DNA of 35,152 nucleotides, from NCBI GenBank assembly GCA_030606215.1, contig JAUWGW010000016.1, positions 1 to 35,152 on the forward strand, read 5' to 3'. Source of the DNA: a bacterium. Its GTDB lineage: Bacteria > NPL-UPA2 > JAUVJM01. The first letter of the stretch is position 1. The number at the start of each line of letters is the position of its first letter. The notes under the pieces were generated by a model. It worked only from the letters and a program-made list of their open reading frames with translations. It was not told the origin of the DNA and ran no database searches. The position numbers were made by a program, and so were the translations under genes. Shown here piece after piece: positions 17,793 to 35,152 of this stretch.

Positions 17793-18101
17793 TTATGGTA
17801 GGTCATTGTCAGTATCTGCTGGCACTGGCATTGATTCTTCCTGCATCACAGATTTTTCCATCACTGATGGAGAGCGCTGAGAAATAAGAAGTGTCAGGGA
17901 AATTGAAGTCAACATGAAAATTATACCCAGGACTGTGGTCAGTTTTGCAAGGAAAGTGCGTGTTCCTGTTCCAAAAAGTGTAGTGCTGCCACCACCTCCA
18001 AAAATTCCGGAAAGCCCCTCTGACTTACTCCCCTGCATCATAACAATAAGGATAAGGAAAACACAGACAATGACATGTAATGCCGCAATCACCGCTATCA
18101 T
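17793..18101 (-). CDS. secG: preprotein translocase subunit SecG
   Basis: 102 residues from the ATG at 18101, which overlaps the tpiA stop by 4 bp and has GAGAGGTG about six bases upstream. A GTG three codons earlier lacks spacing for that site. Two membrane helices (IAVIAALHVIVCVFLILIVMM and LTTVLGIIFMLTSISLTLLI) flank the conserved loop QGSKSEGLSGIFGG and GGSTTLFG. SecG aids SecYEG-mediated export through the inner membrane. The short acidic tail (about 25 residues) is of the usual variable kind. pgk-tpiA-secG is a very common bacterial gene order. Confidence 0.94.
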   Translation of the reverse strand: MIAVIAALHVIVCVFLILIVMMQGSKSEGLSGIFGGGGSTTLFGTGTRTFLAKLTTVLGIIFMLTSISLTLLISQRSPSVMEKSVMQEESMPVPADTDNDLP

Positions 18102-18856
18102 TTTATGCACCTCTCTACAATCCCTATAAACGACTCATCCACAAGACTTGCCCCTCCCACCAGAGCTCCATCAATATCTTCTTCCTCAATCAATGCAGAA
18201 ATATTATCGGGTTTTACGCTTCCTCCGTATAAAATTCTCATCTGCTGAGATATTTTTTCCGAAGAAATGTTTGTGAGAAGCTGCCGTATAAACTTATGAA
18301 CTTCATTTGCCTGATGGGGAGTTGCAGTTTTCCCCGTTCCTATTGCCCAAACAGGTTCATATGCTATTACTATTTTAAGGAGGTTCTCACTACTTAAACC
18401 CTCCAGCCCCCCCTCCAGCTGTCTTCTGACAACATTCTCTGTCTTATTTCTTTCCCTTTCCTCAAGCTTTTCTCCCACACACATAATAGGTGTAAGATTC
18501 CACTCAATGGCTTTCTTCACCTTCTTATTAACCATCTCATCCGTTTCACCGGAATGAATCCTTCTCTCAGAATGTCCGATTATTACATACTTACAGCCGC
18601 TTTCACGCAGCATTAGTGCTGAAACTTCACCTGTATAGGCACCTTCTTCCTCCCAGAAAACATCCTGCGCACCGAGTCTTATATGAGTATCCCCTATCTT
18701 CTCATAAACAGCAGATAATGCCGGGAAAGCCGGACAGATAACAATATCAATCTGTGTTATATCACCCAATCTCCCCTTCATTTTTTCAGCAAGCTCACCT
18801 GCTTCTACAAAAGTTTTATTCATCTTCCAATTTCCTGCAATCAGTATCTTTTTCAT
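18098..18856 (-). CDS. tpiA: triosephosphate isomerase
   Basis: 252 residues, standard size. It interconverts dihydroxyacetone phosphate and glyceraldehyde 3-phosphate. Active-site elements: GNWKMNKT with the catalytic Lys, YVIIGHSERR with the His, the catalytic Glu and flexible loop in AYEPVWAIGTGKTAT, and the phosphate loops RILYGGSVKPDN and DGALVGGASL. It follows pgk by 10 bp and overlaps secG by 4 bp. Confidence 0.97.
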   Translation of the reverse strand: MKKILIAGNWKMNKTFVEAGELAEKMKGRLGDITQIDIVICPAFPALSAVYEKIGDTHIRLGAQDVFWEEEGAYTGEVSALMLRESGCKYVIIGHSERRIHSGETDEMVNKKVKKAIEWNLTPIMCVGEKLEERERNKTENVVRRQLEGGLEGLSSENLLKIVIAYEPVWAIGTGKTATPHQANEVHKFIRQLLTNISSEKISQQMRILYGGSVKPDNISALIEEEDIDGALVGGASLVDESFIGIVERCIK

Positions 18857-18866
18857 ATCTTCTCCA

Positions 18867-20051
18867 TCATTTATCCTTCAGTGCAGCAATCCCCGGCAGC
18901 TCTTTCCCTTCTAAGAACTCGAGCGAAGCGCCGCCACCAGTCGAGACATGGCTAAAACGGGGTGCAAGCCCAAACTTATTCACAGCAGCCGCTGTATCCC
19001 CGCCACCGACAATCGTAGTTGCGCTTGACTCTGCGAGATATTCTCCAATTGCCCTTGTCCCTGCAAGAAACGGCGCAAATTCACATACGCCAAGCGGCCC
19101 GTTCCAAAGAACTGTTTTAGCGTCTTTCAAAATCTCAATAAACTTCTTTACAGCAGCCTGGCCAATATCCATTCCCCTCCAGCCTGACGGAATTTCGCTG
19201 CCAGCGGTATTTTCAGTCTTTGCAGAAGCCGAAAATTCATCCGCAATGACATGGTCTAAAGGTAAGACAAAACTAACTCCCACATCATCCGCTTTCTTCT
19301 GCAAACTTGCAGCGAGTTCAAGTTTGTCTTCTTCCACCAGAGAATCACCCACATCCAAGCCCTTCGCTTTTAAAAATGTATAAGCCATCCCGCCGCCAAT
19401 CAGAAGAGCATTCACCTTATCAAGGAGATTTTCAATTACCTCAATTTTCCCCGAAATTTTCGCTCCACCAAGAATGGCAGCAAACGGGCGTTCGGGATTC
19501 TCAAGAACTCTCTGGAAATGTTCAAGTTCCTTCTGAACGAGGAAACCGGCAACTGCCGGCAAAAATTTTGCAATCCCATCAGTTGAAGCGTGCGCTCTGT
19601 GGCAGGTGCCGAAAGCGTCATTTACAAATATATCTGCAAGTTTAGAAATCTTCTCTGCAAACTCGGGGTCATTTTTCTCTTCTTCCGGATGAAAACGCAA
19701 ATTCTCAAGTAAAAGCACATCGCTTTCCTCAGCAATTCTGACTGCCCCCTCCACTTCTTCCCCAATACAATCGTTTAATTTTCGCACTTTCTTCCCGAGC
19801 AATTCTTCAAGCCTTCTTCCAATTACATCTACCCTCAAACTTTCAACAACTTTCCCCTTAGGCCGGCCTAAGTGTGAAGTAAGAATTAGTTTTGCACCGC
19901 TATCAATAATATAATTGACGGTAGGAAGTGCCGCCCTTATTCTTGTATCATCACTTATTTCCCCGCTCTCATCAAGCGGGACATTGAAATCAGCCCGCAT
20001 CAAAACTCTCTTCCCCTTTATGTCAATATCTTTAACCGTCAGCTTAGCCAA
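18867..20051 (-). CDS. pgk: phosphoglycerate kinase
   Basis: 394 residues, full length. It makes ATP from 1,3-bisphosphoglycerate in lower glycolysis. N-terminal substrate motifs [23 protein letters not shown] and [15 protein letters not shown] are present, as are the GTCHRAHAS segment and the ATP-binding domain with [12 protein letters not shown] and the phosphate loop [12 protein letters not shown], ending [14 protein letters not shown]. It lies 2 bp after thi4 and 10 bp before tpiA. Confidence 0.97.
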
Positions 20052-20053
20052 AT

Positions 20054-21824
<1,771 letters not shown>

Positions 21825-24903: not shown

Positions 24904-26421
24904 TTAGAACAATGTCAAAAGTTTCCCCAATCCCAAAGACTCCATGTGCCTGGAAATATGCCGTTCCAGCAAGCCAAAGTACTCCTCTTCATTTTTATCA
25001 AGGATTTGCATGAGCCTATCCCGGAATATATACTGGTCATTCTCATCCTTTGCCTGAAGCACAGAACCGTAAGTGATGTGAATTAGCTGACGGGTATTAT
25101 CCTCATCAAAAAGTTCTTCCAGCTCCTCGTCTGCTATCTGGTCCACATCCGGTATTGCTTTCAAATCAGTAGTTACATGGTAAGAAACTCTGTCCTGCTC
25201 AAATCTGCTCAGAGCGAATTTATGTATCTGCCGGTAAAAGTCGGGTACCTTCCTTGCCACTGTCCTTATTGCTTCTAAATACGAAGTGCCCGCTGTCTTT
25301 TCATGAAATAGCCCCTGAGTAACCCTACCGACAACACCAAATATAGAGAATTTGTCACTGCCAGAGTGAATGCTGAGCTTGTAATTACCGTATTGCCGGG
25401 CTATAGCGGTATGCTGTTCTAATACACTGGTAAACTTCTGTATATCGCCGATATAGTCTATGGCTTTCTGGAACTCGCCCACAAATCTGGGTGCCAGGCT
25501 GGTAACCTTTACTCCCTGCTCCTTCAACTGGGTAATAATGAAAAAATGGTCACTGGTTAAAGTGGGCAAGTCAGTCTCATCTATAGAGACCTCAAAGTCA
25601 AAAGGCTTCTCGCCGTGAAGCTGGCTCAGGTGTTTGTACATCTTTATTACCTGCTTTATAGCCTGTAAGTACTTAACGGACGCCCTTTTAATTTCCTCAT
25701 CTTTAAAACTGCTCTGTAAACCTTCGCTTTCGAATGTTCGACCGAGGTAGGTATTTAGTAGAAATTCCTTCTGCTTCCGGTCGTCAAAAAGACCTTCGAA
25801 TGCTGACTCAAGTTCCTCTACAGACATCCCATCCGCCTGATTATTGATGTGGTCCGAAGGGTCAACCGTAAACATGGTAAACCCTGCTTTAAAACAGGTT
25901 TCTATATCCTCAGTAGTCTTGAGATGGTCTGCATCGGCACCGAATGGTCTGGTATAATGTTCCTGAAATATCCCCCAGGCAGCCTCATCCATTACCTGCT
26001 GCGGGGTCCGGCCGGTCCGGGTCATCTCCCTTATTGACTGCTGGGCAAAAACAGGCACGACATTAAATTTACTGGCCGCGCGCACGTGTCCTGGCGTAGC
26101 ATTTCCCAGGCGGTCACCGAGCCCGAAACCAGTTTTATTGCCTACAGCCACAGGCCGTGTAAAAGGGCAGAGCTTCCTTAACGAGGCTGCATTCGGGGAA
26201 GTCAGAGGGCAAACTTTCACCTGATAATCCTCACAAGCGTATTCTTCCCCTTCAAATTTCTCAATGTCCGACTTGACTGTATCCCGCGCTTCAGCTATGA
26301 CCAGGAGTTTCTTCCCACCTTTCTTAATCAGAAAAAGTATAGTCCCCTCTCGCTCGGTCAAAGAATCAGGATAAAACTTATCAAACTTCAACAGAGGCCT
26401 GAATGTCTTATCTATCTCCAT
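24904..26421 (-). CDS. uxaE: tagaturonate/fructuronate epimerase UxaE
   Basis: 505 residues from the ATG at 26421. It epimerises D-tagaturonate to D-fructuronate, joining galacturonate to the glucuronate/mannonate branch. Recognised by the UxaE-family phrase GFGLGDRLGNATPGHV and the later FGADADHLKT, FTMFTVDPSDHINN, VSIDETDLPT and SIHSGSDKFSIFG segments, whose His and Asp residues are likely metal ligands. The frame is open back to 26502, but the promoter at 26440-26468 rules that out. The predicted transcript starts at about 26433, exactly on an in-frame GTG, so the message is either leaderless from that GTG (509 residues) or has a 12-base leader with no ribosome binding site. First gene of the uxaE-Gfo-nagB-nagA unit. 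Confidence 0.85.
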   Translation of the reverse strand: MEIDKTFRPLLKFDKFYPDSLTEREGTILFLIKKGGKKLLVIAEARDTVKSDIEKFEGEEYACEDYQVKVCPLTSPNAASLRKLCPFTRPVAVGNKTGFGLGDRLGNATPGHVRAASKFNVVPVFAQQSIREMTRTGRTPQQVMDEAAWGIFQEHYTRPFGADADHLKTTEDIETCFKAGFTMFTVDPSDHINNQADGMSVEELESAFEGLFDDRKQKEFLLNTYLGRTFESEGLQSSFKDEEIKRASVKYLQAIKQVIKMYKHLSQLHGEKPFDFEVSIDETDLPTLTSDHFFIITQLKEQGVKVTSLAPRFVGEFQKAIDYIGDIQKFTSVLEQHTAIARQYGNYKLSIHSGSDKFSIFGVVGRVTQGLFHEKTAGTSYLEAIRTVARKVPDFYRQIHKFALSRFEQDRVSYHVTTDLKAIPDVDQIADEELEELFDEDNTRQLIHITYGSVLQAKDENDQYIFRDRLMQILDKNEEEYFGLLERHISRHMESLGLGKLLTLF

Positions 26422-26439
26422 TGTATTTTTCACTCCCGA

Positions 26440-26468
26440 ATTATACCCCACGCCATTTAGTCTGTCAA
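26440..26468 (-). promoter_or_regulatory. consensus promoter for uxaE operon
   Basis: On the minus strand a perfect TTGACA (26468-26463) and a perfect TATAAT (26445-26440) are separated by 17 bases. Predicted start of transcription 26433. It is back-to-back with the equally perfect promoter on the other strand. Confidence 0.8.
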
Positions 26469-26493
26469 AGAAAACAGAAAAATCTCGGATCCC

Positions 26494-26507
26494 GTAGAAC
26501 ACTCTAC
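26494..26507. promoter_or_regulatory. inverted repeat between divergent promoters, candidate operator
   Basis: GTAGA, four bases, TCTAC: a perfect 5-bp inverted repeat between the two divergent -35 boxes (26463-26468 and 26518-26523), 10 bp before the plus-strand one. A regulator bound here could control both directions. The arms are short and chance is possible; no regulator gene lies in the window. Confidence 0.3.
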
Positions 26508-26517
26508 TGACTTTTTC

Positions 26518-26545
26518 TTGACAATAGACACCCAGGACATATAAT
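26518..26545 (+). promoter_or_regulatory. consensus promoter for the uxuB-lar-pdxB-gnd operon
   Basis: TTGACA at 26518-26523 and TATAAT at 26540-26545 with a 16-base spacer. Predicted start near 26552, then GGAAGGAGGG at 26574-26583 before the TTG start of the first gene. All seven plus-strand genes to 33835 follow without another clear promoter. Confidence 0.8.
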
Positions 26546-26589
26546 AAAATCTGCGAGTCAGCAAGAAAAGTTGGAAGGAGGGTGAAGAT

Positions 26590-27408
26590 TTGAAGGAATT
26601 ATTTGATTTAGATGGTAAAGTAGCTGTAGTAACCGGGGGAGGGGGTATACTCTGCGGCACGATAGCCAGAGCTCTGGCAAAGCAGGGAGTCTCGGTGGCT
26701 ATTTTAGACCTCAACGAAGAGTCAGCTCAAAAAGTGGCTGAGGAAATTTCTAAAGAAGGAGGGAAAGCAATCGGTCTCAAAACAGATGTTCTTTCCCGCG
26801 AAAGTCTGGAGAAATCCAAATCTATTATTATGAAGGAATTTGGGCATCTGGATATTTTGATAAATGGAGCCGGGGGTAATAAGAAGGAAGCAACCACCTC
26901 TAAAGAACTTGAATTTTTTGACATTCCCCCAGAAGCAATCAGATGGGTCTTTGACCTGAATTTTTTAGGAGTCTTCCTTTCCTCACAGGTCTTTGGGAAA
27001 GCCTTAGCAAAACAAAAGGAAGGAATAATCATCAATATTTCCTCAATGAATGCTCTGCGTCCCCTGACTCGTATTCCTGCCTACTCAGCCGCCAAAGCAG
27101 CAGTTTCCAACTTTACTCAATGGTTAGCCGTGCACATGTGTCAGAATTATTCAACGAAGATTCGGGTTAATGCCATTGCACCGGGTTTCTTCTTGACTGA
27201 ACAGAACCGTTTTCTTCTTACTGATGAGAAAACCGGAGAGCTTACCCCTCGGGGAAAAACTATTATAGAGCACACTCCAATGGGGCGTTTCGGCGCTCCC
27301 GAAGACCTCATCGGCATAATTGCATGGCTGGCATCTCCTTCTGCTCAGTTTGTCCAGGGAACAATAATCCCGGTGGACGGAGGATTCTCTGCTTTCAGTG
27401 GTGTGTAA
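26590..27408 (+). CDS. uxuB: SDR-type D-mannonate oxidoreductase (fructuronate reductase)
   Basis: 272 residues, TTG start seven bases after GGAAGGAGGG. Classical SDR: TGGGGILCG cofactor loop (residues 15-23), LDLNEE, NGAGG, Ser151/152, Tyr165 and Lys169 in YSAAK, and VNAIAPGFF. The C-terminus PVDGGFSAFSGV is typical of the SDR UxuB group of Bacillus and Thermotoga, which reduces fructuronate to D-mannonate with NAD(P)H, unlike the long-chain UxuB of E. coli. UxaE, divergently transcribed next door, makes its substrate. Other sugar-acid SDRs are possible, but the C-terminal match and the neighbour agree. Confidence 0.82.
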   Translation: MKELFDLDGKVAVVTGGGGILCGTIARALAKQGVSVAILDLNEESAQKVAEEISKEGGKAIGLKTDVLSRESLEKSKSIIMKEFGHLDILINGAGGNKKEATTSKELEFFDIPPEAIRWVFDLNFLGVFLSSQVFGKALAKQKEGIIINISSMNALRPLTRIPAYSAAKAAVSNFTQWLAVHMCQNYSTKIRVNAIAPGFFLTEQNRFLLTDEKTGELTPRGKTIIEHTPMGRFGAPEDLIGIIAWLASPSAQFVQGTIIPVDGGFSAFSGV

Positions 27409-27426
27409 TATTAAGGGAGAAAAGAG

Positions 27427-28320
27427 ATGGATGTTAAAGAAGCAGGTCGACCACTTAAAAAACTTAAGCCGGAGCATAACTTCTTTGTCGGTATAGATTC
27501 AGATGGATGCACTTTTGATACTATGGAAATAAAGCATAAGGAATGTTTTATTCCTAATATTATCAAGCACTGGGGTCTCCAGCCCATTTCAAAATATGCA
27601 CGGGAGGCTGCAGAATTTGTCAATCTCTACTCCAGATGGAGAGGGATAAACCGTTTCCCCGCCTTAGTCATGGTCTTTGACCTCCTGCGTGAGAGGGAGG
27701 AAGTGAAAAAAAGGGAAGTAGATATTCCCCGGGCTCCTAAGATTAGAGAATTCATTGATTCCGGTGTGCCTCTTGGGAACCCTGCTTTGAAGGAGGCAGT
27801 GGAGAAAACGGGAGACCCTGAACTCAAAAAAGCCCTGGAGTGGAGTGAAGCAGTGAACCGCACTGTGGCAGACATTGTTAGCGGTGTTCCTCCCTTCCCT
27901 TTTGTCAGAGAGAGCCTGGAAAAACTTTCTACTGCAGCAGACTGTGTCGTTGTCTCTGCTACACCGACAGAAGCTCTCCGAAGAGAATGGCAGGAGCACG
28001 GCATTGCTAAGTATGTAAAAGTGATTGCCGGGCAGGAAATGGGTTCTAAGAAAGAGCACCTGGCACTTGCTTCAGGAGGAAAATATAAATCGGACCACAT
28101 TCTTATGATTGGCGATGCTCCCGGAGACATGAAAGCGGCACAAGCGAATAAGGCTCTCTTCTACCCAATTATACCGGGGCAGGAAGAAAAATCCTGGGAG
28201 AAATTCTACAGTGAATCTCTAAGTGTCTTCCTCTCCCAGAAATATGCCGGCGAACATGAGACAAAGTTGGTAGAAGAATTTATGAAGTATCTCCCGGAAA
28301 AACCACCATGGAAGGGATAG
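27427..28320 (+). CDS. HAD-superfamily hydrolase, sugar-acid operon type
   Basis: 297 residues. HAD motif I is DSDGCTFDT (nucleophile D24, acid D26), motif II SATPTEA, the Lys of motif III near KKEH, and motif IV GDAPGD; a large helical cap lies between about residues 40 and 160. The active site is complete, so a phosphatase acting on a small phosphorylated metabolite is the simplest guess. The long N-terminal part and cap (GLQPISKYAREAAEFVNLYS) are not of a family whose substrate I know. It lies 18 bp after uxuB and overlaps larE by 13 bp, so it is tied to the mannonate/nickel-pincer genes. Confidence 0.8.
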   Translation: MDVKEAGRPLKKLKPEHNFFVGIDSDGCTFDTMEIKHKECFIPNIIKHWGLQPISKYAREAAEFVNLYSRWRGINRFPALVMVFDLLREREEVKKREVDIPRAPKIREFIDSGVPLGNPALKEAVEKTGDPELKKALEWSEAVNRTVADIVSGVPPFPFVRESLEKLSTAADCVVVSATPTEALRREWQEHGIAKYVKVIAGQEMGSKKEHLALASGGKYKSDHILMIGDAPGDMKAAQANKALFYPIIPGQEEKSWEKFYSESLSVFLSQKYAGEHETKLVEEFMKYLPEKPPWKG

Positions 28321-29147
28321 ACACCGAACTTTCAGGAAAATTAGAGCGTCTGGAAAAAATATTGTCTACGATGGGAAGCACACTTGTCGCTTACTCAGGC
28401 GGAGTAGACAGCACATTTTTGCTTAAAGTTTCATCCGATGTGTTAAAGGACAAAACGCTTGCCGTCACTGCAAATTCGGAAATATATCCGCCAGGAGAAC
28501 TTGAAGAAGCTGAAGGAAATGCAAAGATGCTCGGCGTAAGGCATAAGGTTATTGAGACAAATGAATTGGATGATACTTGTTTCACGTCCAATACTCCAGA
28601 AAGATGCTATTACTGTAAGAAGGAGTTATTTTCTAAACTATTTCAATTAGCAAATCAGTTCGACTTAGACCATATCATTGACGGTTCAAATTACGATGAC
28701 CTATATGATTTCCGTCCAGGCATGAAAGCAGCATCCGAGCTTGGTGTAAAAAGTCCCTTAAAGGATGCCATGTTCACGAAAGAGGAGATTAGAATATTAT
28801 CAAAGAAAATGAGTTTGCCTACATGGGATAAACCTTCCAGCCCTTGTTTATCAAGCAGGTTTCCCTATGGCAGCAAAATTACAAAGGAAAAACTCTTAAG
28901 AGTTAAACTTGCAGAGGAATTCCTGTCAAAATTCGGAATAAGACAACTGAGAGTTAGAGACCACGGTGATATAGCGAGAATAGAAATTCTGAAACCGGAT
29001 ATGGGTATACTTCTTAAAGAGGATGTCTCTAAAAAAATTACAGACCGATTTCATGCTCTGGGATATACCTATATCACTCTGGACCTTAAAGGCTACAGAA
29101 CAGGCAGTATGAATGAGTCATTAAAAAGAGAAGATAGAATTGGATAG
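28308..29147 (+). CDS. larE: ATP-dependent sacrificial sulfur transferase LarE
   Basis: 279 residues. It inserts sulfur into the pyridinium dicarboxylate precursor of the nickel-pincer nucleotide (NPN) cofactor. PP-loop SGGVDS at residues 30-35 binds ATP; NSEIYPPGELEEAE, ERCYYCKKEL (C100, C103), DGSNYDD and the SSPCLSSRFPYG segment with C180 are family marks. C180 corresponds to the sulfur-donating cysteine; with C100 and C103 a cluster-bound variant is also conceivable. The start overlaps the HAD gene, and its end overlaps larB by 8 bp. Confidence 0.95.
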   Translation: MEGIDTELSGKLERLEKILSTMGSTLVAYSGGVDSTFLLKVSSDVLKDKTLAVTANSEIYPPGELEEAEGNAKMLGVRHKVIETNELDDTCFTSNTPERCYYCKKELFSKLFQLANQFDLDHIIDGSNYDDLYDFRPGMKAASELGVKSPLKDAMFTKEEIRILSKKMSLPTWDKPSSPCLSSRFPYGSKITKEKLLRVKLAEEFLSKFGIRQLRVRDHGDIARIEILKPDMGILLKEDVSKKITDRFHALGYTYITLDLKGYRTGSMNESLKREDRIG

Positions 29148-29898
29148 GGACAAAATCAGAAAACTTTTGAGCGGCGTTAGAGAGGGGAAAATCGGAGTTG
29201 ATGATGCCTTAAAAATTCTAAGATTCCTTCCCTATGAAGACCTAAATTTCGCCAAGATTGATACTCATAGAACTCTAAGGAAAGGCTTCCCGGAAGTGAT
29301 ACTCGGTAAAGGAAAAAGCACAGAGCAAATAACAAAAATTGCACAAAGGTTTCTATCAAGAAACGAACTTCTCATGATTACGAAAGCAAGTAAGGAAGTT
29401 TATGAAGCAATTATAAAAATGAACAAAAATACCGTTTATTATGAAGCGGCTAAAATAGTACTAACTGGTCAGAAGAGAAAAAAAAGAAACAAGAAAACAA
29501 TTTTAGTTGCCAGCGCAGGAACTTCTGACCTGTCAATTGCTGAAGAGGCAGCAGTCACAGCAGAGATTATGGGAAATGCTGTCGGGAGACTTTATGATGT
29601 CGGTGTTGCGGGAATTCACAGACTCTTTGAGAATAAAGAAAAGTTGTTTAATGCGAATGTCATTATAGTTGTTGCCGGCATGGAAGGAGCCTTATCAAGT
29701 ATAGTCACAGGATTAGTAGACAAACCAGTAATTGCAGTTCCGACCAGCACAGGATATGGGGCTAATTTCAACGGGCTATCTGCTTTATTGACTATGTTAA
29801 ACTGTTGTGCACCAGGTGCAGTAGTTGTAAATATAGATAACGGGTTTGGCGGTGGATACTTTGCCAGTCTCATAAACCAGATGAGTAAAGAAAAATAA
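29140..29898 (+). CDS. larB: nickel-pincer cofactor biosynthesis protein LarB
   Basis: 252 residues from a TTG start inside the end of larE. LarB carboxylates and hydrolyses nicotinic acid adenine dinucleotide, the first step of NPN synthesis. N-terminal part with DTHRTLRKGFPEVILGKGKS, then an AIR-carboxylase-like core: TILVASAGTSDLSIAEEAAV, DVGVAGIHRL, VVAGMEGALSSIVTGLV, PVIAVPTSTGYGA and the end VVNIDNGFGGGY. All are canonical. The nickel-inserting LarC that normally completes the set is not in this operon. Confidence 0.95.
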   Translation: MDRDKIRKLLSGVREGKIGVDDALKILRFLPYEDLNFAKIDTHRTLRKGFPEVILGKGKSTEQITKIAQRFLSRNELLMITKASKEVYEAIIKMNKNTVYYEAAKIVLTGQKRKKRNKKTILVASAGTSDLSIAEEAAVTAEIMGNAVGRLYDVGVAGIHRLFENKEKLFNANVIIVVAGMEGALSSIVTGLVDKPVIAVPTSTGYGANFNGLSALLTMLNCCAPGAVVVNIDNGFGGGYFASLINQMSKEK

Positions 29899-29908
29899 GG
29901 AACAGGCT

Positions 29909-31207
29909 ATGCCGTGGTTTTATGAAGAAGCCAAATCAATTGGGGTTGAGCAAAAAAAGGATTTGATGCAGAGGCTGATAGAGCAAGCGCGGGGGAGAAT
30001 AACAAAAGACATTAAAAAAGTCTTGCTTTTGCCCCCTGACCTTACCCGTTATCATTCAGGAGCAGGCCAGTTGACAGAAATAATTTACAGGCTTCTTCCT
30101 GAGAATTGCAAGGTTGATGTCATCCCCACACTGGGACAGCATGTACCTCACACTGACGAGGAAAATAGATGGATGTTTGGCTCTATTCCATTAAAATGTT
30201 TTCATGTGCACGATTGGCGTAAAGGATGCAAAAAAATAGGTGAGGTTAGTGCAGATTATGTGAAAGAGGTTAGCGAAGGAAAAGCAGATTGGCCTATTCC
30301 GATTGAAATCAATAGGATGGTCGTCGAAAATGATTATGACCTCATCATAAACATAGGCCATGTTGTTCCTCACGAAGTCCTGGGTTTTGCCAACCACAAC
30401 AAGAATTATTTTATTGGATTGGGCGGGAAGGAAACTATCTGCACTTCTCATATGATGGCTGCTTGCTGTGGTATAGAAAATAATTTAGGTCAACTCATCA
30501 CTCCCCTCCGGGCTTGCTATAACAAAGCAGAAGAAGATTATTTAAATGAACTCCCTGACGTTTATGTATTGATTGTTATGGCGAGAAATGAAGAGCAGGA
30601 ACTTGTAACCACAGGTTTGTATGCAGGCGATGACCTGGAAACCTATCTGATAGCTGCTCGTAGAAGCAGGGAACAAAACATCACCATTTTTGACGAGCCG
30701 GTAAAAAAGATTGTTGCCGTTATGCAAGCCGATGAATTTAGAAGTACCTGGGTAGCTAATAAGGCTATCTACCGCACCCGCATGGCTCTGGCGGACAAGG
30801 GTGAGTTATTAATCATTGCCCCGGGGCTGGAACGTTTTGGTGAACAATCCGAAGTTGATGCTTTGATTCGTAAATATGGATATGTGGGAACCCCAACGGT
30901 TATGGAGCAATATAGGAAAAACAATGACTTGCAGGATTTAGCACATGCGGCTGCCCATCTGATTCATGGCTCCAGCGAAAGCCGCTTTACCATAATGTAT
31001 GCTCCCGGCAAACTCACCAGAGAAGAGATCAAAAGTGTCAATTTTGAATATATTGAGCTGAATGATGCTTTAAATCGTTATAACCCCGAGAAAATGTCAG
31101 AGGGTTGGAATACTATGCCTGATGGCGAAGAAGTTTATTTTATAAGTTCTCCCTCAGCAGGATTATGGACATGGAAAAAGAAATTGCAAGATCGATTGAG
31201 GAAATGA
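29909..31207 (+). CDS. larA: LarA-family nickel-pincer racemase/epimerase homologue
   Basis: 432 residues. Member of the lactate racemase (DUF2088/LarA) family that uses the NPN cofactor to move hydride at the alpha carbon of 2-hydroxyacids. Seen: DLTR near residue 44, GQHVPHTDEE with H78 and H81, INIGHVVPHEV with H151 and H155, and GLGGKE with K174, the likely residue that tethers the cofactor, followed by H181. The spacing between the His and Lys differs from lactate racemase (insertion ANHNKNYF), so lactate is not the expected substrate. Known homologues include a D-gluconate 2-epimerase; beside uxuB and gnd, a mannonate/gluconate 2-epimerase is an attractive inference. AAGGA lies 11 bases upstream. 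Confidence 0.85.
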   Translation: MPWFYEEAKSIGVEQKKDLMQRLIEQARGRITKDIKKVLLLPPDLTRYHSGAGQLTEIIYRLLPENCKVDVIPTLGQHVPHTDEENRWMFGSIPLKCFHVHDWRKGCKKIGEVSADYVKEVSEGKADWPIPIEINRMVVENDYDLIINIGHVVPHEVLGFANHNKNYFIGLGGKETICTSHMMAACCGIENNLGQLITPLRACYNKAEEDYLNELPDVYVLIVMARNEEQELVTTGLYAGDDLETYLIAARRSREQNITIFDEPVKKIVAVMQADEFRSTWVANKAIYRTRMALADKGELLIIAPGLERFGEQSEVDALIRKYGYVGTPTVMEQYRKNNDLQDLAHAAAHLIHGSSESRFTIMYAPGKLTREEIKSVNFEYIELNDALNRYNPEKMSEGWNTMPDGEEVYFISSPSAGLWTWKKKLQDRLRK

Positions 31208-31262
31208 ATCCCGTTAAACACTATCATAGACCTGGCGGGGTTAAAAGGAGATGTCTAACGGG

Positions 31263-32408
31263 ATGAAAATTGTTGCTGATGAGAACATACCTTTTGTAAA
31301 GCAAGCTTTTGAAAAGTTAGGAGAGGTCGTTACTTATCCCGGGCGCCACATCAATTCTGCAGCGGTCAAAGAATCCGACATCCTCCTGGTTCGGTCAATA
31401 ACCAGAGTTGACGAACCCCTTCTCAGAGGAAGCAAAATTCGTTTCGTAGCTACAGCAACTATTGGCTGCGACCATATTGACATTGATTATCTAAAAAAAG
31501 AGAGCATTCAATTCGCCAGTGCGGCTGGATGCAATGCTAACTCAGTAGCTGAATATCTTGCAGCCGCTCTCCTAATACTTGCTCGCCGGCATGGATTCTC
31601 TCTTTCGGAGAAAACCATCGGTGTGGTCGGAGTGGGAAATGTTGGTTCCCGGGTAGTAGAAAAGGCAGGTATTCTCAACATGAATACCCTCCAGAACGAC
31701 CCTCCTCTATCACGGAAAACGGGCGAGCTGCATTTCCGCCCCATAGAGGAGATTTTAAAGCAATCGGATATTATAACTCTACACGTGCCCCTGACTTACG
31801 AAGGGCAAGATGCAACCTATCACATGGTTAACGACAGTTTTCTTGAAAAAATGAAGAAGGGGAGTTTCCTTATTAACACTTCTCGTGGGGCAGTGGTGGA
31901 TAATCCCGCTCTGCTTATGTCTTTTAGACAGAATAAGTTAAAGGGCGCTGTGCTTGATGTCTGGGAAGGTGAGCCGGAAATAAATGAGGAACTTCTCAGA
32001 GCAGTTGAACTGGGGACCCCGCACATCGCAGGCTATTCCCTTGACGGTAAGACCAATGCTACAATATTGATTTATCGGGCAGTATGCCATTTTCTGAAGG
32101 TCCCCTGCGACTGGCAACTGCCGGAACTCCCTTCCCCTCCCTGCCCGAAAATTGAAGTCGATGATAGTGGAGAAAACGATGAGAAAATATTAGCTGAAGT
32201 AGTGAAAAAAGCTTATGATTTAGAACGTGATGACAAAGCTCTTAGAGAGGTTCTTGAAATTCCTCAATCTCAGCGGCAAATTTTTTTTGACCAATTAAGG
32301 AGCAAATATCCAGTTCGCCGTGAATTTAACAGTATCGAGGTGAATGTCAAAGGAGCTAATCAAGAACTCAGTCAGAAACTAAAAGCTCTCGGTTTTCGCC
32401 AACGATAA
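31263..32408 (+). CDS. pdxB: erythronate-4-phosphate dehydrogenase-like protein PdxB
   Basis: 381 residues from the ATG at 31263; an ATG at 31251 touches AAAGGAG and leaves no spacer. 2-Hydroxyacid dehydrogenase fold: start [29 protein letters not shown] loop GVGNVG (123-128), catalytic R208 in [10 protein letters not shown]237 and H254 in [11 protein letters not shown]. The C-terminal PdxB dimerisation domain ([14 protein letters not shown]) is present, which separates it from SerA. PdxB makes 2-oxo-3-hydroxy-4-phosphobutanoate for DXP-dependent pyridoxal phosphate synthesis. In this operon it could instead oxidise an aldonate phosphate. Close homology to PdxB outside gamma-proteobacteria is uncommon. 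Confidence 0.85.
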
Positions 32409-32419
32409 GGAGATTAATT

Positions 32420-33835
32420 ATGCAAGAAGAAAAACAGAAGATGGGATTGGTTGGATTGGCGGTTATGGGGCAGAACCTTGCCCTCAACATTGAATCAAAG
32501 GGTTTTCCTATTGCCGTATTCAACAGGACTTCAGCAAAGACTGAAGAGTTCGCAAAAGGAACCGCTAAGGGAAAGAAAATCCTCCCCACCTATTCCATTG
32601 AGGAATTCGTCAATTCACTTGAAAAGCCCCGACGCATTATGCTTATGGTAAAAGCCGGCGAGGCTGTAGATAATTTTATCGAGAAACTGCTCCCTAATCT
32701 GGAGAAAGGTGACCTCATAATTGATGGGGGCAACTCTTTTTTTGGTGATACCATCCGCCGCAGTAAGAATTTAGCTGAGAAAGGCATTCTCTATATCGGC
32801 ACCGGAGTCAGTGGAGGAGAAGAGGGGGCACTCCATGGACCTTCACTAATGCCAGGAGGACAGAAATCTTCCTACGATTTGATGGCTCCCATCTTTACCA
32901 AAATTGCTGCCCAGGTAAACGGTGACCCGTGCTGTGCCTACATCGGACCTGATGGAGCAGGACATTATGTGAAAATGGTCCACAATGGTATAGAGTATGG
33001 GGATATGCAGCTGATTACCGAAGCCTACACAATCATGAAAAATATTCTTGGTATGGGAGCTCCCGAGCTACATCAGGTCTTCTCAAAATGGAACGAAGGA
33101 GAACTCAATTCGTACCTTATTGAGATAACCGCAGACATTTTCTCCAAGACCGATGAAGAGACAGGAAAACCGCTCGTAGAACTGATACTGGACAAAGCCG
33201 GTCAGAAAGGAACAGGCAAATGGGCAAGCCAGTCCGCGCTTGATTTGGGCATCCCGGCACCTACAATTGCTGAAGCGGTTTTCGCCCGTTGTATCTCAGC
33301 TCTCAAAGAGGAGCGGGTACAGGCCTCAAGAATTCTCCCCGGACCAGAAACCAAGTTTGATGGCAACCGTGAAGAATTCATTGAAGCTATCCGTCAGGCT
33401 CTCTACGCTTCCAAAATATGCAGTTATGCCCAGGGCTTTGCTCTGATGCAGTCAGCAGGTAAAGAGCACAAATGGAATCTCAAATTAGGAGAGATTGCTA
33501 TGATCTGGCGAGGTGGCTGCATAATCAGAGCTCAATTCCTGCACGGGATAAAGGAAGCCTTTGACCGCAACCCGGGTCTCGCCAATCTGCTTCTTGACCC
33601 TTATTTCAAGGAAGTTATAGGGAAATCTCAAAAAGCCTGGCGCATGGTAATCTCTACATCTGCCAATCTGGGTGTTCCGATTCCGGCTTTCAGTTCCGCA
33701 CTTTGTTACTACGACTCCTATCGTCAGGAAAGGCTGAGCGCTAATTTGATTCAGGCTCAAAGAGATTACTTCGGCGCTCATACCTACCAACGAATAGATA
33801 AAGAAGGAACATTTCACACTGATTGGTATCAGTAA
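32420..33835 (+). CDS. gnd: 6-phosphogluconate dehydrogenase, decarboxylating
   Basis: 471 residues, the long dimeric form. It oxidises 6-phosphogluconate to ribulose 5-phosphate and CO2. NADP loop [18 protein letters not shown] with NRT after the second strand, [21 protein letters not shown], catalytic Lys in [29 protein letters not shown], and the C-terminal [13 protein letters not shown] tail that completes the partner active site. AAGGAG precedes the start by about eight bases. The stop TAA (33833-33835) is part of the left end of MITE-like copy D, although the protein end is of normal length. Zwf and a gluconate kinase are not in the window. Confidence 0.97.
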
Positions 33836-34036: not shown

Positions 34037-34462
34037 TTATGAAGTTTTTGTCAGAAACACAGTGATATAACGTCTAAAAGCATCAAAATCGGTTAGCTGA
34101 TTTTGTAGAATTCCGTAAATCTTCTTTAAATCTATTTCTAAATAATCATGCACTAAAATGTTTCTTAGTCCTGCCATACCTTGAATTCTCTTAGCAAAAT
34201 CAGGAGGGATGATTCCTTCTGAGCCCAATCTATCAATGACCTCTGTGTAGTCCTCACATCTATTCTTACCAAGAGCTGAAAGTATATGACTGCCTATATC
34301 AACTAAATTTTGAGTAGCCAGCTGAAGCCCATGTTCAATTTCCCACTGTTTCTTAAAATCTGAACAGATTTCTTCAAGAGAATATATTTGTAGAGCTGCC
34401 AAAGACCGACTCACACGCTCTAATTCCCTGAGATGTTTATAGATTACATCTTTATCTATCAT
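34037..34462 (-). CDS. hepT: HepT-type HEPN toxin
   Basis: 141 residues, DUF86/HEPN fold of helices. The RNase motif RNILVHDY (R100, H105, Y107) fits the RX4HXY signature; in studied HepT proteins the tyrosine is adenylylated by the MntA partner to silence the toxin. It begins in the last codon of mntA (ATGA overlap), the usual order antitoxin first. The likely target is RNA (tRNA in studied cases). Located between copy D and an insertion sequence, in an accessory setting. Confidence 0.9.
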   Translation of the reverse strand: MIDKDVIYKHLRELERVSRSLAALQIYSLEEICSDFKKQWEIEHGLQLATQNLVDIGSHILSALGKNRCEDYTEVIDRLGSEGIIPPDFAKRIQGMAGLRNILVHDYLEIDLKKIYGILQNQLTDFDAFRRYITVFLTKTS

Positions 34463-34881
34463 GCTAGCACTCTCTGCCTAAAATATTTATTCTGGATCTC
34501 ACGTAGTGGCTTAGTATCTATATACCGTTGAAGGGAATGCACTTCAAAAAAGATTCTATCCTTCTCATCTTTGCTGTCAATAATAGTCCCATCTCTTACA
34601 ACCCTATGGGCAAGAAGTGGAGGTGCTGAGTTAAGGCAGATCACATCAATCCTATTGGACTTAAGTACTGCCATCAAATCCGCCGTCAGTTCCGCCTGGT
34701 ATCCCAAAATTCCTTCTTTTGCTATTCCCTTATTTATTAGAACAGCTATGTCGGTGTCACTAAGTGGATTGCTCTCATCTCTGGCACGAGAACCAAATAG
34801 GTAAGCAACAGTCACCTCTGGTTTGTTCTTAAAATATTTTTTCAACATGCTAATTATTTGTTCACATTTTTGAGATGCCAT
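34459..34881 (-). CDS. mntA: MntA-type nucleotidyltransferase antitoxin
   Basis: 140 residues from the ATG at 34881 (MASQKCEQII), chosen because GGAGG lies five bases upstream; the frame is open further up to 35061 but that region is the end of an insertion sequence. Minimal nucleotidyltransferase fold with the GSx10DxD motif: G30, S31, D42 and D44 in FGSRARDESNPLSDTDIAV. It should AMPylate the HepT toxin. The protein is about 40 residues longer than the smallest MNT proteins; the end (EVHSLQRYIDTKPLREIQ) is helical. Forms a module with hepT. Confidence 0.9.
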   Translation of the reverse strand: MASQKCEQIISMLKKYFKNKPEVTVAYLFGSRARDESNPLSDTDIAVLINKGIAKEGILGYQAELTADLMAVLKSNRIDVICLNSAPPLLAHRVVRDGTIIDSKDEKDRIFFEVHSLQRYIDTKPLREIQNKYFRQRVLA

Positions 34882-34967
34882 TGGTGCCTCCTGCTCAATA
34901 TTATCGCCAACCTTCCCCAAAAAAGCAAGAAAAATGTGACTGTCGAACACTGTCATACCAAAATGAT

Positions 34968-35003
34968 AATGTCCTATTGTAGCAAAATAGAAATGTCCTA
35001 TTG
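34968..35003. repeat. tandem AATGTCCTATTG boxes at an insertion-sequence end
   Basis: AATGTCCTATTG occurs at 34968-34979 and again at 34992-35003, 24 bp apart. They precede the transposase start at 35039 and are probably transposase-binding sites of the left end. A third weaker AATGTCC occurs in the element at 1538-1682. The outer tip of the insertion sequence is not clear; TGTCGAACACTGTCA near 34941 is one candidate. Confidence 0.55.
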
Positions 35004-35038
35004 GGAAGTTAATAATGCTCTTCAGAAAGGAGAGCATT

Positions 35039-35152
35039 ATGGACAGAAAGGACATTATCATAATGAGACAGGAAGAATTAAGAAGGGCAAGTATAGTGAG
35101 TAAAGCTATGGAGGGATTGATAATTCAGAAGAAAGCTGCTGAGATTATTGGT
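35039..35152 (+). CDS. transposase N-terminus (helix-turn-helix, ISNCY-like), cut by window edge
   Basis: 38 codons visible from an ATG preceded by AAAGGAG. The residues MRQEELRRASIVSKAMEG and IIQKKAAEIIG are a typical helix-turn-helix opening of ISNCY-type (and IS481/IS21-like) transposases, where a lysine/arginine-rich helix leads to the AAEIIG turn. The rest of the gene lies outside. The ATG at 35063 is an alternative start. With the boxes at 34968-35003 this is the left end of an insertion sequence next to the mntA-hepT pair. Confidence 0.7.
   Translation, partial: MDRKDIIIMRQEELRRASIVSKAMEGLIIQKKAAEIIG

What the first reader, a model, noticed from the sequence alone, without database searches (positions are those of the whole stretch)
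24904..33835. Possible new uronate route: mannonate to gluconate by a nickel-pincer 2-epimerase, feeding Gnd
Seen: uxaE and, divergently, an operon of SDR uxuB, a HAD hydrolase, larE, larB, a divergent larA and gnd. Known: UxaE makes fructuronate, SDR UxuB makes D-mannonate, and the LarA family includes a D-gluconate 2-epimerase; D-mannonate and D-gluconate are C2 epimers. Inference: mannonate is epimerised to gluconate, phosphorylated and decarboxylated by Gnd, avoiding mannonate dehydratase and KDG. No uxuA, kdgK or kdgA is in the window. The kinase is missing here, and the HAD phosphatase could instead mean the flow runs the other way.
Basis: partly seen in the sequence, partly recalled or inferred. 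Interest (0 to 1): 0.8.

Follow-up and report, generated by a model that had tools for sequence, protein, structure and literature searches.

The report
Nickel-epimerase uronate-to-pentose operon, kinase missing
The window carries an operon that very probably breaks down sugar acids by flipping D-mannonate into D-gluconate with a nickel-pincer enzyme and feeding it to the pentose phosphate pathway; the route was already proposed for Thermotoga in 2012, but here the usual kinase and isomerase are missing and candidate stand-ins lie elsewhere in the genome.

Summary
The genes are real. The LarA homologue belongs to NCBIfam NF052594 ('group 18', putative hexonate epimerase), not to lactate racemases. 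Group-18 relatives in many phyla sit beside uxuB, uxaE, uxaC and gnd, and in Saccharobesus one is fused to gluconokinase, which supports mannonate→gluconate→6-phosphogluconate→Gnd. The genome lacks UxuA, KDPG aldolase, Zwf, UxaC, GntK and LarC, so Gnd's substrate most simply comes from gluconate. The route is not new: it was proposed for Thermotoga in 2012 (gnd-uxaRED-gntEK), and GntE2's mannonate/gluconate epimerisation was assayed in 2020. New here: an unassayed LarA group placed in the route by its neighbours; at least five kinase types beside it; a PPi-type phosphofructokinase homologue, 70-74% identical to genes inside or beside such operons, as kinase candidate; an IolB homologue as isomerase candidate; a conserved HAD phosphatase and PdxB; and LarC absent from 15 of 22 LarA-bearing genomes checked. 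Substrate, kinase and step order remain inferred.

The parts
24904..26421 (-). uxaE, tagaturonate/fructuronate 3-epimerase (open frame reaches GTG 26502)
   Evidence: PF16257 605 bits, profile starts at residue 44; promoter inside the longer frame
26440..26468 (-). promoter of uxaE, TTGACA-17-TATAAT
   Evidence: 12 of 12 consensus match
26518..26545 (+). promoter of the uxuB operon, TTGACA-16-TATAAT
   Evidence: 12 of 12 consensus match
26590..27408 (+). uxuB-type SDR, fructuronate reductase / D-mannonate oxidoreductase
   Evidence: NF006132 390 bits, cut-off 281
27427..28320 (+). HAD phosphatase of a narrow family that travels with LarA and Gnd
   Evidence: HAD_2; all four HAD motifs invariant in 8 members, 62-85% identity; C1-cap fold
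28308..29147 (+). larE, sulfur insertion into the nickel-pincer cofactor
   Evidence: TIGR00268 324 bits, cut-off 150
29140..29898 (+). larB, cofactor carboxylase/hydrolase
   Evidence: NF033503 286 bits, cut-off 175
29909..31207 (+). larA homologue, group 18, predicted D-mannonate/D-gluconate 2-epimerase
   Evidence: NF052594 611 bits, cut-off 500; only PDB relative 4NAR = GntE2; catalytic and cofactor residues kept
31251..32408 (+). pdxB homologue, 4-phosphoerythronate dehydrogenase
   Evidence: NF001309 461 bits, cut-off 434; DUF3410 tail
32420..33835 (+). gnd, decarboxylating 6-phosphogluconate dehydrogenase
   Evidence: TIGR00873 753 bits, cut-off 427

Best explanation
The locus is a uronate catabolic module of the kind proposed for Thermotoga. 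UxaE converts tagaturonate to fructuronate, the SDR reduces it to D-mannonate, the nickel-pincer LarA homologue (cofactor made by LarB and LarE) inverts C2 to give D-gluconate, a kinase encoded elsewhere makes 6-phosphogluconate, and Gnd decarboxylates it to ribulose 5-phosphate. SHOWN here: the genes, their family membership, the conserved neighbourhood, and the genes missing from the assembly. INFERRED: the substrate of this LarA, the order of epimerisation and phosphorylation, the kinase and the isomerase. The best kinase candidate in this genome is a PPi-type phosphofructokinase homologue (G000:C3:19364-20620). The best uronate isomerase candidate is the IolB-family gene beside it. The HAD phosphatase and PdxB may clear 4-phosphoerythronate, a known inhibitor of 6-phosphogluconate dehydrogenase, or PdxB may serve vitamin B6 synthesis; neither was tested.
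For: LarA is NF052594 at 611 bits against 30 for lactate racemase; its only PDB relative is GntE2 4NAR. Catalytic and cofactor residues and the E-V loop and W of hexonate groups 18-20 are kept (PMC7583248). Among 80 group-18 loci, gnd lies nearby in 12, an uxuB-type SDR in 10, uxaC in 6, uxaE in 4. Operons UxaE-UxuB-LarA-PfkA-HAD-Gnd (L092), UxuB-HAD-LarA-Gnd (L064), UxuB-PfkB-LarA-LarE-LarB-Gnd (L055). GntK-LarA fusion beside larE, larB, UxaE, gnd and uxaC in Saccharobesus; uxaC-TRAP-gntK-larA-larC-larE-larB in Catenovulum. Own genome has no UxuA (18), Eda (22) or Zwf (49). Its only PfkA is 70-74% identical to the one inside the L092 operon and to one in an IolB-PfkA-UxaE row on the contig that carries PdxB-LarA-Gnd; the three form a 100/100 clade.
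Against: No group-18 enzyme was found assayed in the papers read. Group 18 has N284 and R289-x-R291 where GntE2 has G and K-x-Q, so the substrate may differ. No gluconokinase of a known family is in the genome; the PfkA candidate is also its only PfkA and may simply serve glycolysis, and sister genome G006, with the same operon, lacks an orthologue. LarC is missing. UxaC is missing. The assembly is 92.9% complete. The altronate route and enolase-type mannonate dehydratases were not searched for.
Confidence: 0.72

Rival explanations
1. Phosphorylation comes first: a kinase makes 6-phosphomannonate and the group-18 LarA epimerises it to 6-phosphogluconate, as activities in Lactobacillus suebicus extracts suggest.
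For: That order was shown in L. suebicus extracts (PMC6978723), with the epimerase gene unknown. Group 18 has an invariant R289-x-R291 after the catalytic lysine that GntE2 lacks, a possible phosphate clamp. A GntK-LarA fusion fits either order.
Against: GntE2 and LarAH15 act on free D-mannonate (PMC7583248, PMC11770544). No distance of the two arginines to the substrate was measured here.
Confidence: 0.2
2. The LarA acts on another hexonate or uronate-derived acid (for example altronate or an aldarate), and Gnd is linked only by regulation.
For: The authors of PMC7583248 suspect a different native substrate for group 19; the group-18 signature differs from GntE2 next to the catalytic lysine.
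Against: Repeated linkage to the SDR mannonate oxidoreductase, Gnd and gluconokinases, including a fusion.
Confidence: 0.1
3. Flow runs backwards: 6-phosphogluconate is dephosphorylated by the HAD enzyme to gluconate, then epimerised and oxidised towards uronates.
For: HAD phosphatase in the operon; no known gluconokinase in the genome.
Against: No Zwf to supply 6-phosphogluconate. HAD-bearing operons elsewhere also carry a kinase-fold gene (PfkA in L064 and L092, a galactokinase-like GHMP gene in L122). No user of the product was found.
Confidence: 0.06
4. The genome uses the ordinary mannonate dehydratase/KDG route and its genes are merely in the unassembled 7%.
For: Assembly 92.9% complete; T. 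maritima has both routes (PMC3750489).
Against: UxuA, UxaC, Eda, Zwf, GntK and LarC are all missing together; relatives G003, G006 and G007 lack Zwf as well.
Confidence: 0.05

Closest known systems
Thermotoga maritima pectin/galacturonate operon gnd-uxaRED-gntEK (Rodionova 2012; PMC3750489)
   Same: gnd, uxaE, an SDR fructuronate reductase and a LarA-family gntE in one locus; same proposed route
   Different: Window lacks gntK and the regulator uxaR; adds HAD, larE, larB and pdxB; its LarA is group 18 rather than group 20 and only about 28% identical to GntE2; genome lacks UxuA, UxaC and LarC
LarAH20/GntE2 and LarAH19/GntE1, D-gluconate 2-epimerases (PMC7583248); LarAH15 (PMC11770544)
   Same: Catalytic and cofactor-binding residues, E-V/S loop, W in helix 11
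   Different: Group 18 carries N-K-x3-R-x-R where GntE2 has G-K-x3-K-x-Q; no assay of group 18 found
Lactobacillus suebicus galacturonate pathway (PMC6978723)
   Same: Mannonate carbon enters as 6-phosphogluconate, avoiding KDG
   Different: There phosphorylation precedes epimerisation; the epimerase gene is unknown

Membership tests
LarA superfamily group 18 (NF052594, putative hexonate epimerase) | Score over the curated cut-off of 500 bits | tested here: met
   611 bits; Saccharobesus, Catenovulum, L092 and L096 relatives 619-659 bits
LarA superfamily group 18 (NF052594, putative hexonate epimerase) | Catalytic D, H, H, K and cofactor R, K, H residues | tested here: met
   D44, R47, H78, H155, K165, H181, K285 invariant in all 36 rows
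D-gluconate 2-epimerase (GntE) | Interconverts D-mannonate and D-gluconate | not testable with these tools
   Needs an assay; inferred from context
Nickel-dependent lactate racemase (NF033504) | Score over the cut-off of 460 bits | tested here: not met
   30.5 bits
Thermotoga-type uxaE-gntE-gntK-gnd route | UxaE, SDR reductase, GntE-like LarA and Gnd encoded together | tested here: met
Thermotoga-type uxaE-gntE-gntK-gnd route | Gluconokinase | tested here: not met
   TIGR01313 only 20 bits on the P-loop of a shikimate-kinase-like gene; the two FGGY kinases look like RhaB and AraB; PfkA candidate untested
Canonical mannonate dehydratase / KDPG route | UxuA and KDPG aldolase | tested here: not met
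   No match in own genome at 92.9% completeness
Nickel-pincer nucleotide biosynthesis LarB-LarE-LarC | LarB and LarE | tested here: met
Nickel-pincer nucleotide biosynthesis LarB-LarE-LarC | LarC nickel insertase | tested here: not met
   No PF01969 in own genome nor in same-family G003
PdxB, 4-phosphoerythronate dehydrogenase in B6 synthesis | Over the PdxB cut-off and PdxJ in the genome | tested here: met
   461 bits against 434; PdxJ present; a different role here is not excluded

The most novel reading that the evidence does not exclude
A complete KDG-free and Zwf-free uronate route in which a PPi-dependent phosphofructokinase homologue phosphorylates gluconate (or mannonate), an IolB-family enzyme replaces uronate isomerase UxaC, the HAD phosphatase and PdxB protect Gnd from 4-phosphoerythronate, and the nickel-pincer cofactor is finished without LarC.
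Probability: 0.15. Interest if true: 0.75.

Novelty: new variant of a known kind. Interest (0 to 1): 0.5.

Why it matters
It places a LarA group with no known assay, found here in over a dozen phyla, in a specific pathway step with named test substrates, and shows that the phosphorylation step next to it has been filled by at least five kinase types. It also offers candidates for the mannonate/6-phosphomannonate epimerase gene that the L. suebicus work left open, and points to apparently LarC-less nickel-pincer systems, including a complete Terriglobus roseus genome.

Tried and rejected
Own-genome GntK search gave only a shikimate-kinase-like P-loop hit. The two FGGY kinases look like RhaB and AraB by reading. 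Of the six PfkB genes, three were scanned and none reached a curated cut-off. PDB and Foldseek/VIA matches of the HAD model give only the generic C1-cap phosphatase fold (phosphoglycolate phosphatase, beta-PGM, mannitol-1-phosphatase, haloacid dehalogenase), no substrate. The idea that the HAD protein replaces gluconokinase was dropped because HAD operons in L064 and L092 also hold a PfkA gene and L122 a GHMP kinase gene. Reading the PfkA substrate from active-site residues was inconclusive: R is kept at the E. coli R243 position by hand alignment. PMC4505799 (Rodionova 2012) was not held, so its content is cited through other papers.
Full report
OBSERVATION. The region 24904-33835 holds uxaE on the minus strand and, divergently, seven + strand genes: uxuB-type SDR, HAD hydrolase, larE, larB, larA, pdxB, gnd. 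Neighbouring + strand genes overlap by up to 13 bases or are at most 43 bases apart, so they look like one operon. Between uxaE and uxuB lie two perfect sigma70-like promoters, one on each strand, at 26440-26468 and 26518-26545 (both match 12 of 12 bases, whereas the next best site matches 10). The minus-strand promoter lies inside the long uxaE frame, so uxaE probably starts at ATG 26421.

WHAT THE LarA IS. It scores 611 bits against NCBIfam NF052594, 'nickel-dependent putative hexonate epimerase' (group 18 of Desguin et al.), cut-off 500, and only 30 bits against lactate racemase. Its only PDB relative by sequence is 4NAR, which PMC7583248 identifies as T. maritima GntE2, a proven D-mannonate/D-gluconate epimerase. 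The residues that match the catalytic and cofactor residues of GntE2 are all present. PMC7583248 predicts that group 18 acts on a hexonate but did not assay it, and a second study (PMC11770544) assays further LarA homologues without naming group 18. A difference: group 18 has an invariant N before the catalytic lysine and R-x-R after it, where GntE2 has G and K-x-Q. This may mean a slightly different substrate, possibly a 6-phosphate.

NEIGHBOURHOOD TEST. A scan of GTDB species genomes gave at least 575 relatives, of which the best 80 loci were kept. Within the held flanks (1.14 Mb in all), gnd is found in 12 loci, an uxuB-type SDR in 10, uxaC in 6, uxaE in 4, larE in 14 and larB in 13. With one or two gnd genes per genome of 3-4 Mb, about 0.5 would be expected by chance (my estimate). 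The gnd-linked loci span, by record title, Planctomycetota, Bacteroidota, Ignavibacteriota, Armatimonadota, Kiritimatiellota, Actinomycetota, a Caldisericota-labelled MAG and unnamed lineages. In Saccharobesus litoralis a single reading frame fuses GntK to a group-18 LarA, beside larE, larB, uxaE, gnd and uxaC. The paper on that strain reports its uxaE, but the words gluconokinase and racemase do not occur in it. Catenovulum has uxaC-TRAP-gntK-larA-larC-larE-larB.

KINASES. Next to group-18 LarA the kinase differs by lineage: GntK (L015, L016, L095), FGGY (L037, L024), two kinds of PfkB (L055 and L023; L096 and L094) and a PfkA of the PPi type (L064, L092). In G007, where the LarA is of another group, a galactokinase-like GHMP gene sits with HAD, pdxB, larA and gnd. 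The window's own genome has no GntK and no FGGY gluconokinase. Its only PfkA is 70% identical to the one inside the L092 operon and 74% to one in an IolB-PfkA-UxaE row in G009, on the same 17 kb contig as HAD and PdxB-LarA-Gnd; these three form a clade at 100/100. It bears the sequence GGND...PKTIDND, which by my knowledge of the family marks PPi use. It may instead be the glycolytic enzyme, and G006, with the same operon, has no orthologue, so this is a candidate only.

MISSING GENES. Own genome (1.52 Mb, 92.9% complete): no UxuA, UxaC (19), KDPG aldolase (22), Zwf (49), LarC (14, 50). Zwf is also absent from G001, G003, G006 and G007, the other LarA-bearing members of this nine-genome phylum. 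Thus Gnd is unlikely to work in the usual oxidative pathway and most simply receives 6-phosphogluconate from gluconate. An IolB-family gene (TIGR04378, over cut-off) lies next to the PfkA gene in the own genome and upstream of PfkA and UxaE in G009. The related KduI of E. coli facilitates galacturonate and glucuronate conversion (PMC3578941; the authors hypothesise isomerisation), so IolB is a candidate for the missing isomerase; an inositol-type pathway is an alternative source of the uronate.

HAD AND PdxB. The HAD proteins are 62-85% identical across phyla with all catalytic motifs kept and fold as a C1-cap phosphatase. 4-Phosphoerythronate inhibits 6-phosphogluconate dehydrogenase and is removed by dedicated phosphatases elsewhere (abstract of PMC6449344); PdxB uses the same compound. 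A protective role is a hypothesis. PdxJ is present, so PdxB may serve vitamin B6 synthesis.

NOVELTY. The route was proposed in 2012 and its T. maritima epimerase assayed in 2020 (PMC6978723, PMC3750489, PMC7583248). PMC6978723 notes that gntE homologues were already reported in Terriglobus. The window is therefore a new variant: a different LarA group, a different kinase and probably a different isomerase, plus HAD and PdxB. The finding is useful because every open step has a named gene and a simple assay.

LIMITS. No assay of group 18 was found. Altronate-route genes, KDG aldolases of other families and enolase-type mannonate dehydratases were not searched; a weak enolase-superfamily match lies in the own genome at L117:306-1652. 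HAD, PdxB and PfkA distributions were read from neighbourhoods and a few genomes only.

Noticed in passing
G000 and further genomes (G022 = Terriglobus roseus DSM 18391, complete): No LarC (PF01969) in 15 of the 22 LarA-bearing genomes among the 26 searched; T. roseus has larA, larE and larB side by side but no LarC match, suggesting nickel insertion by another protein.
   Followed up: partly
L016:11765-12448 and L015:12775-13461: Small membrane proteins beside larB with weak (below cut-off) matches to the NicO nickel-transport family.
   Followed up: no
window 18098-21812: tpi, pgk, a Thi4-like gene and gap form a minus-strand row next to nagA, nagB, a Gfo/Idh gene and uxaE (by reading of the translations); the same tpi-pgk-Thi4-gap order is in G003 (L121).
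   Followed up: no
L011 and L013 (G000:C1, C22): Two copies of an inositol-3-phosphate synthase-like gene followed by a PfkB kinase, one with transketolase halves downstream; an unusual cluster in a small genome (reading).
   Followed up: no
window 34037-35061: Two adjacent minus-strand genes that look like a HEPN/MNT nucleotidyltransferase pair; the second weakly matches PADLOC PDC-S09.
   Followed up: partly
L122:13747-15357: Galactokinase-like GHMP gene (below cut-off) in line with HAD, pdxB, a non-group-18 larA and gnd in G007; a further possible kinase for the route.
   Followed up: no
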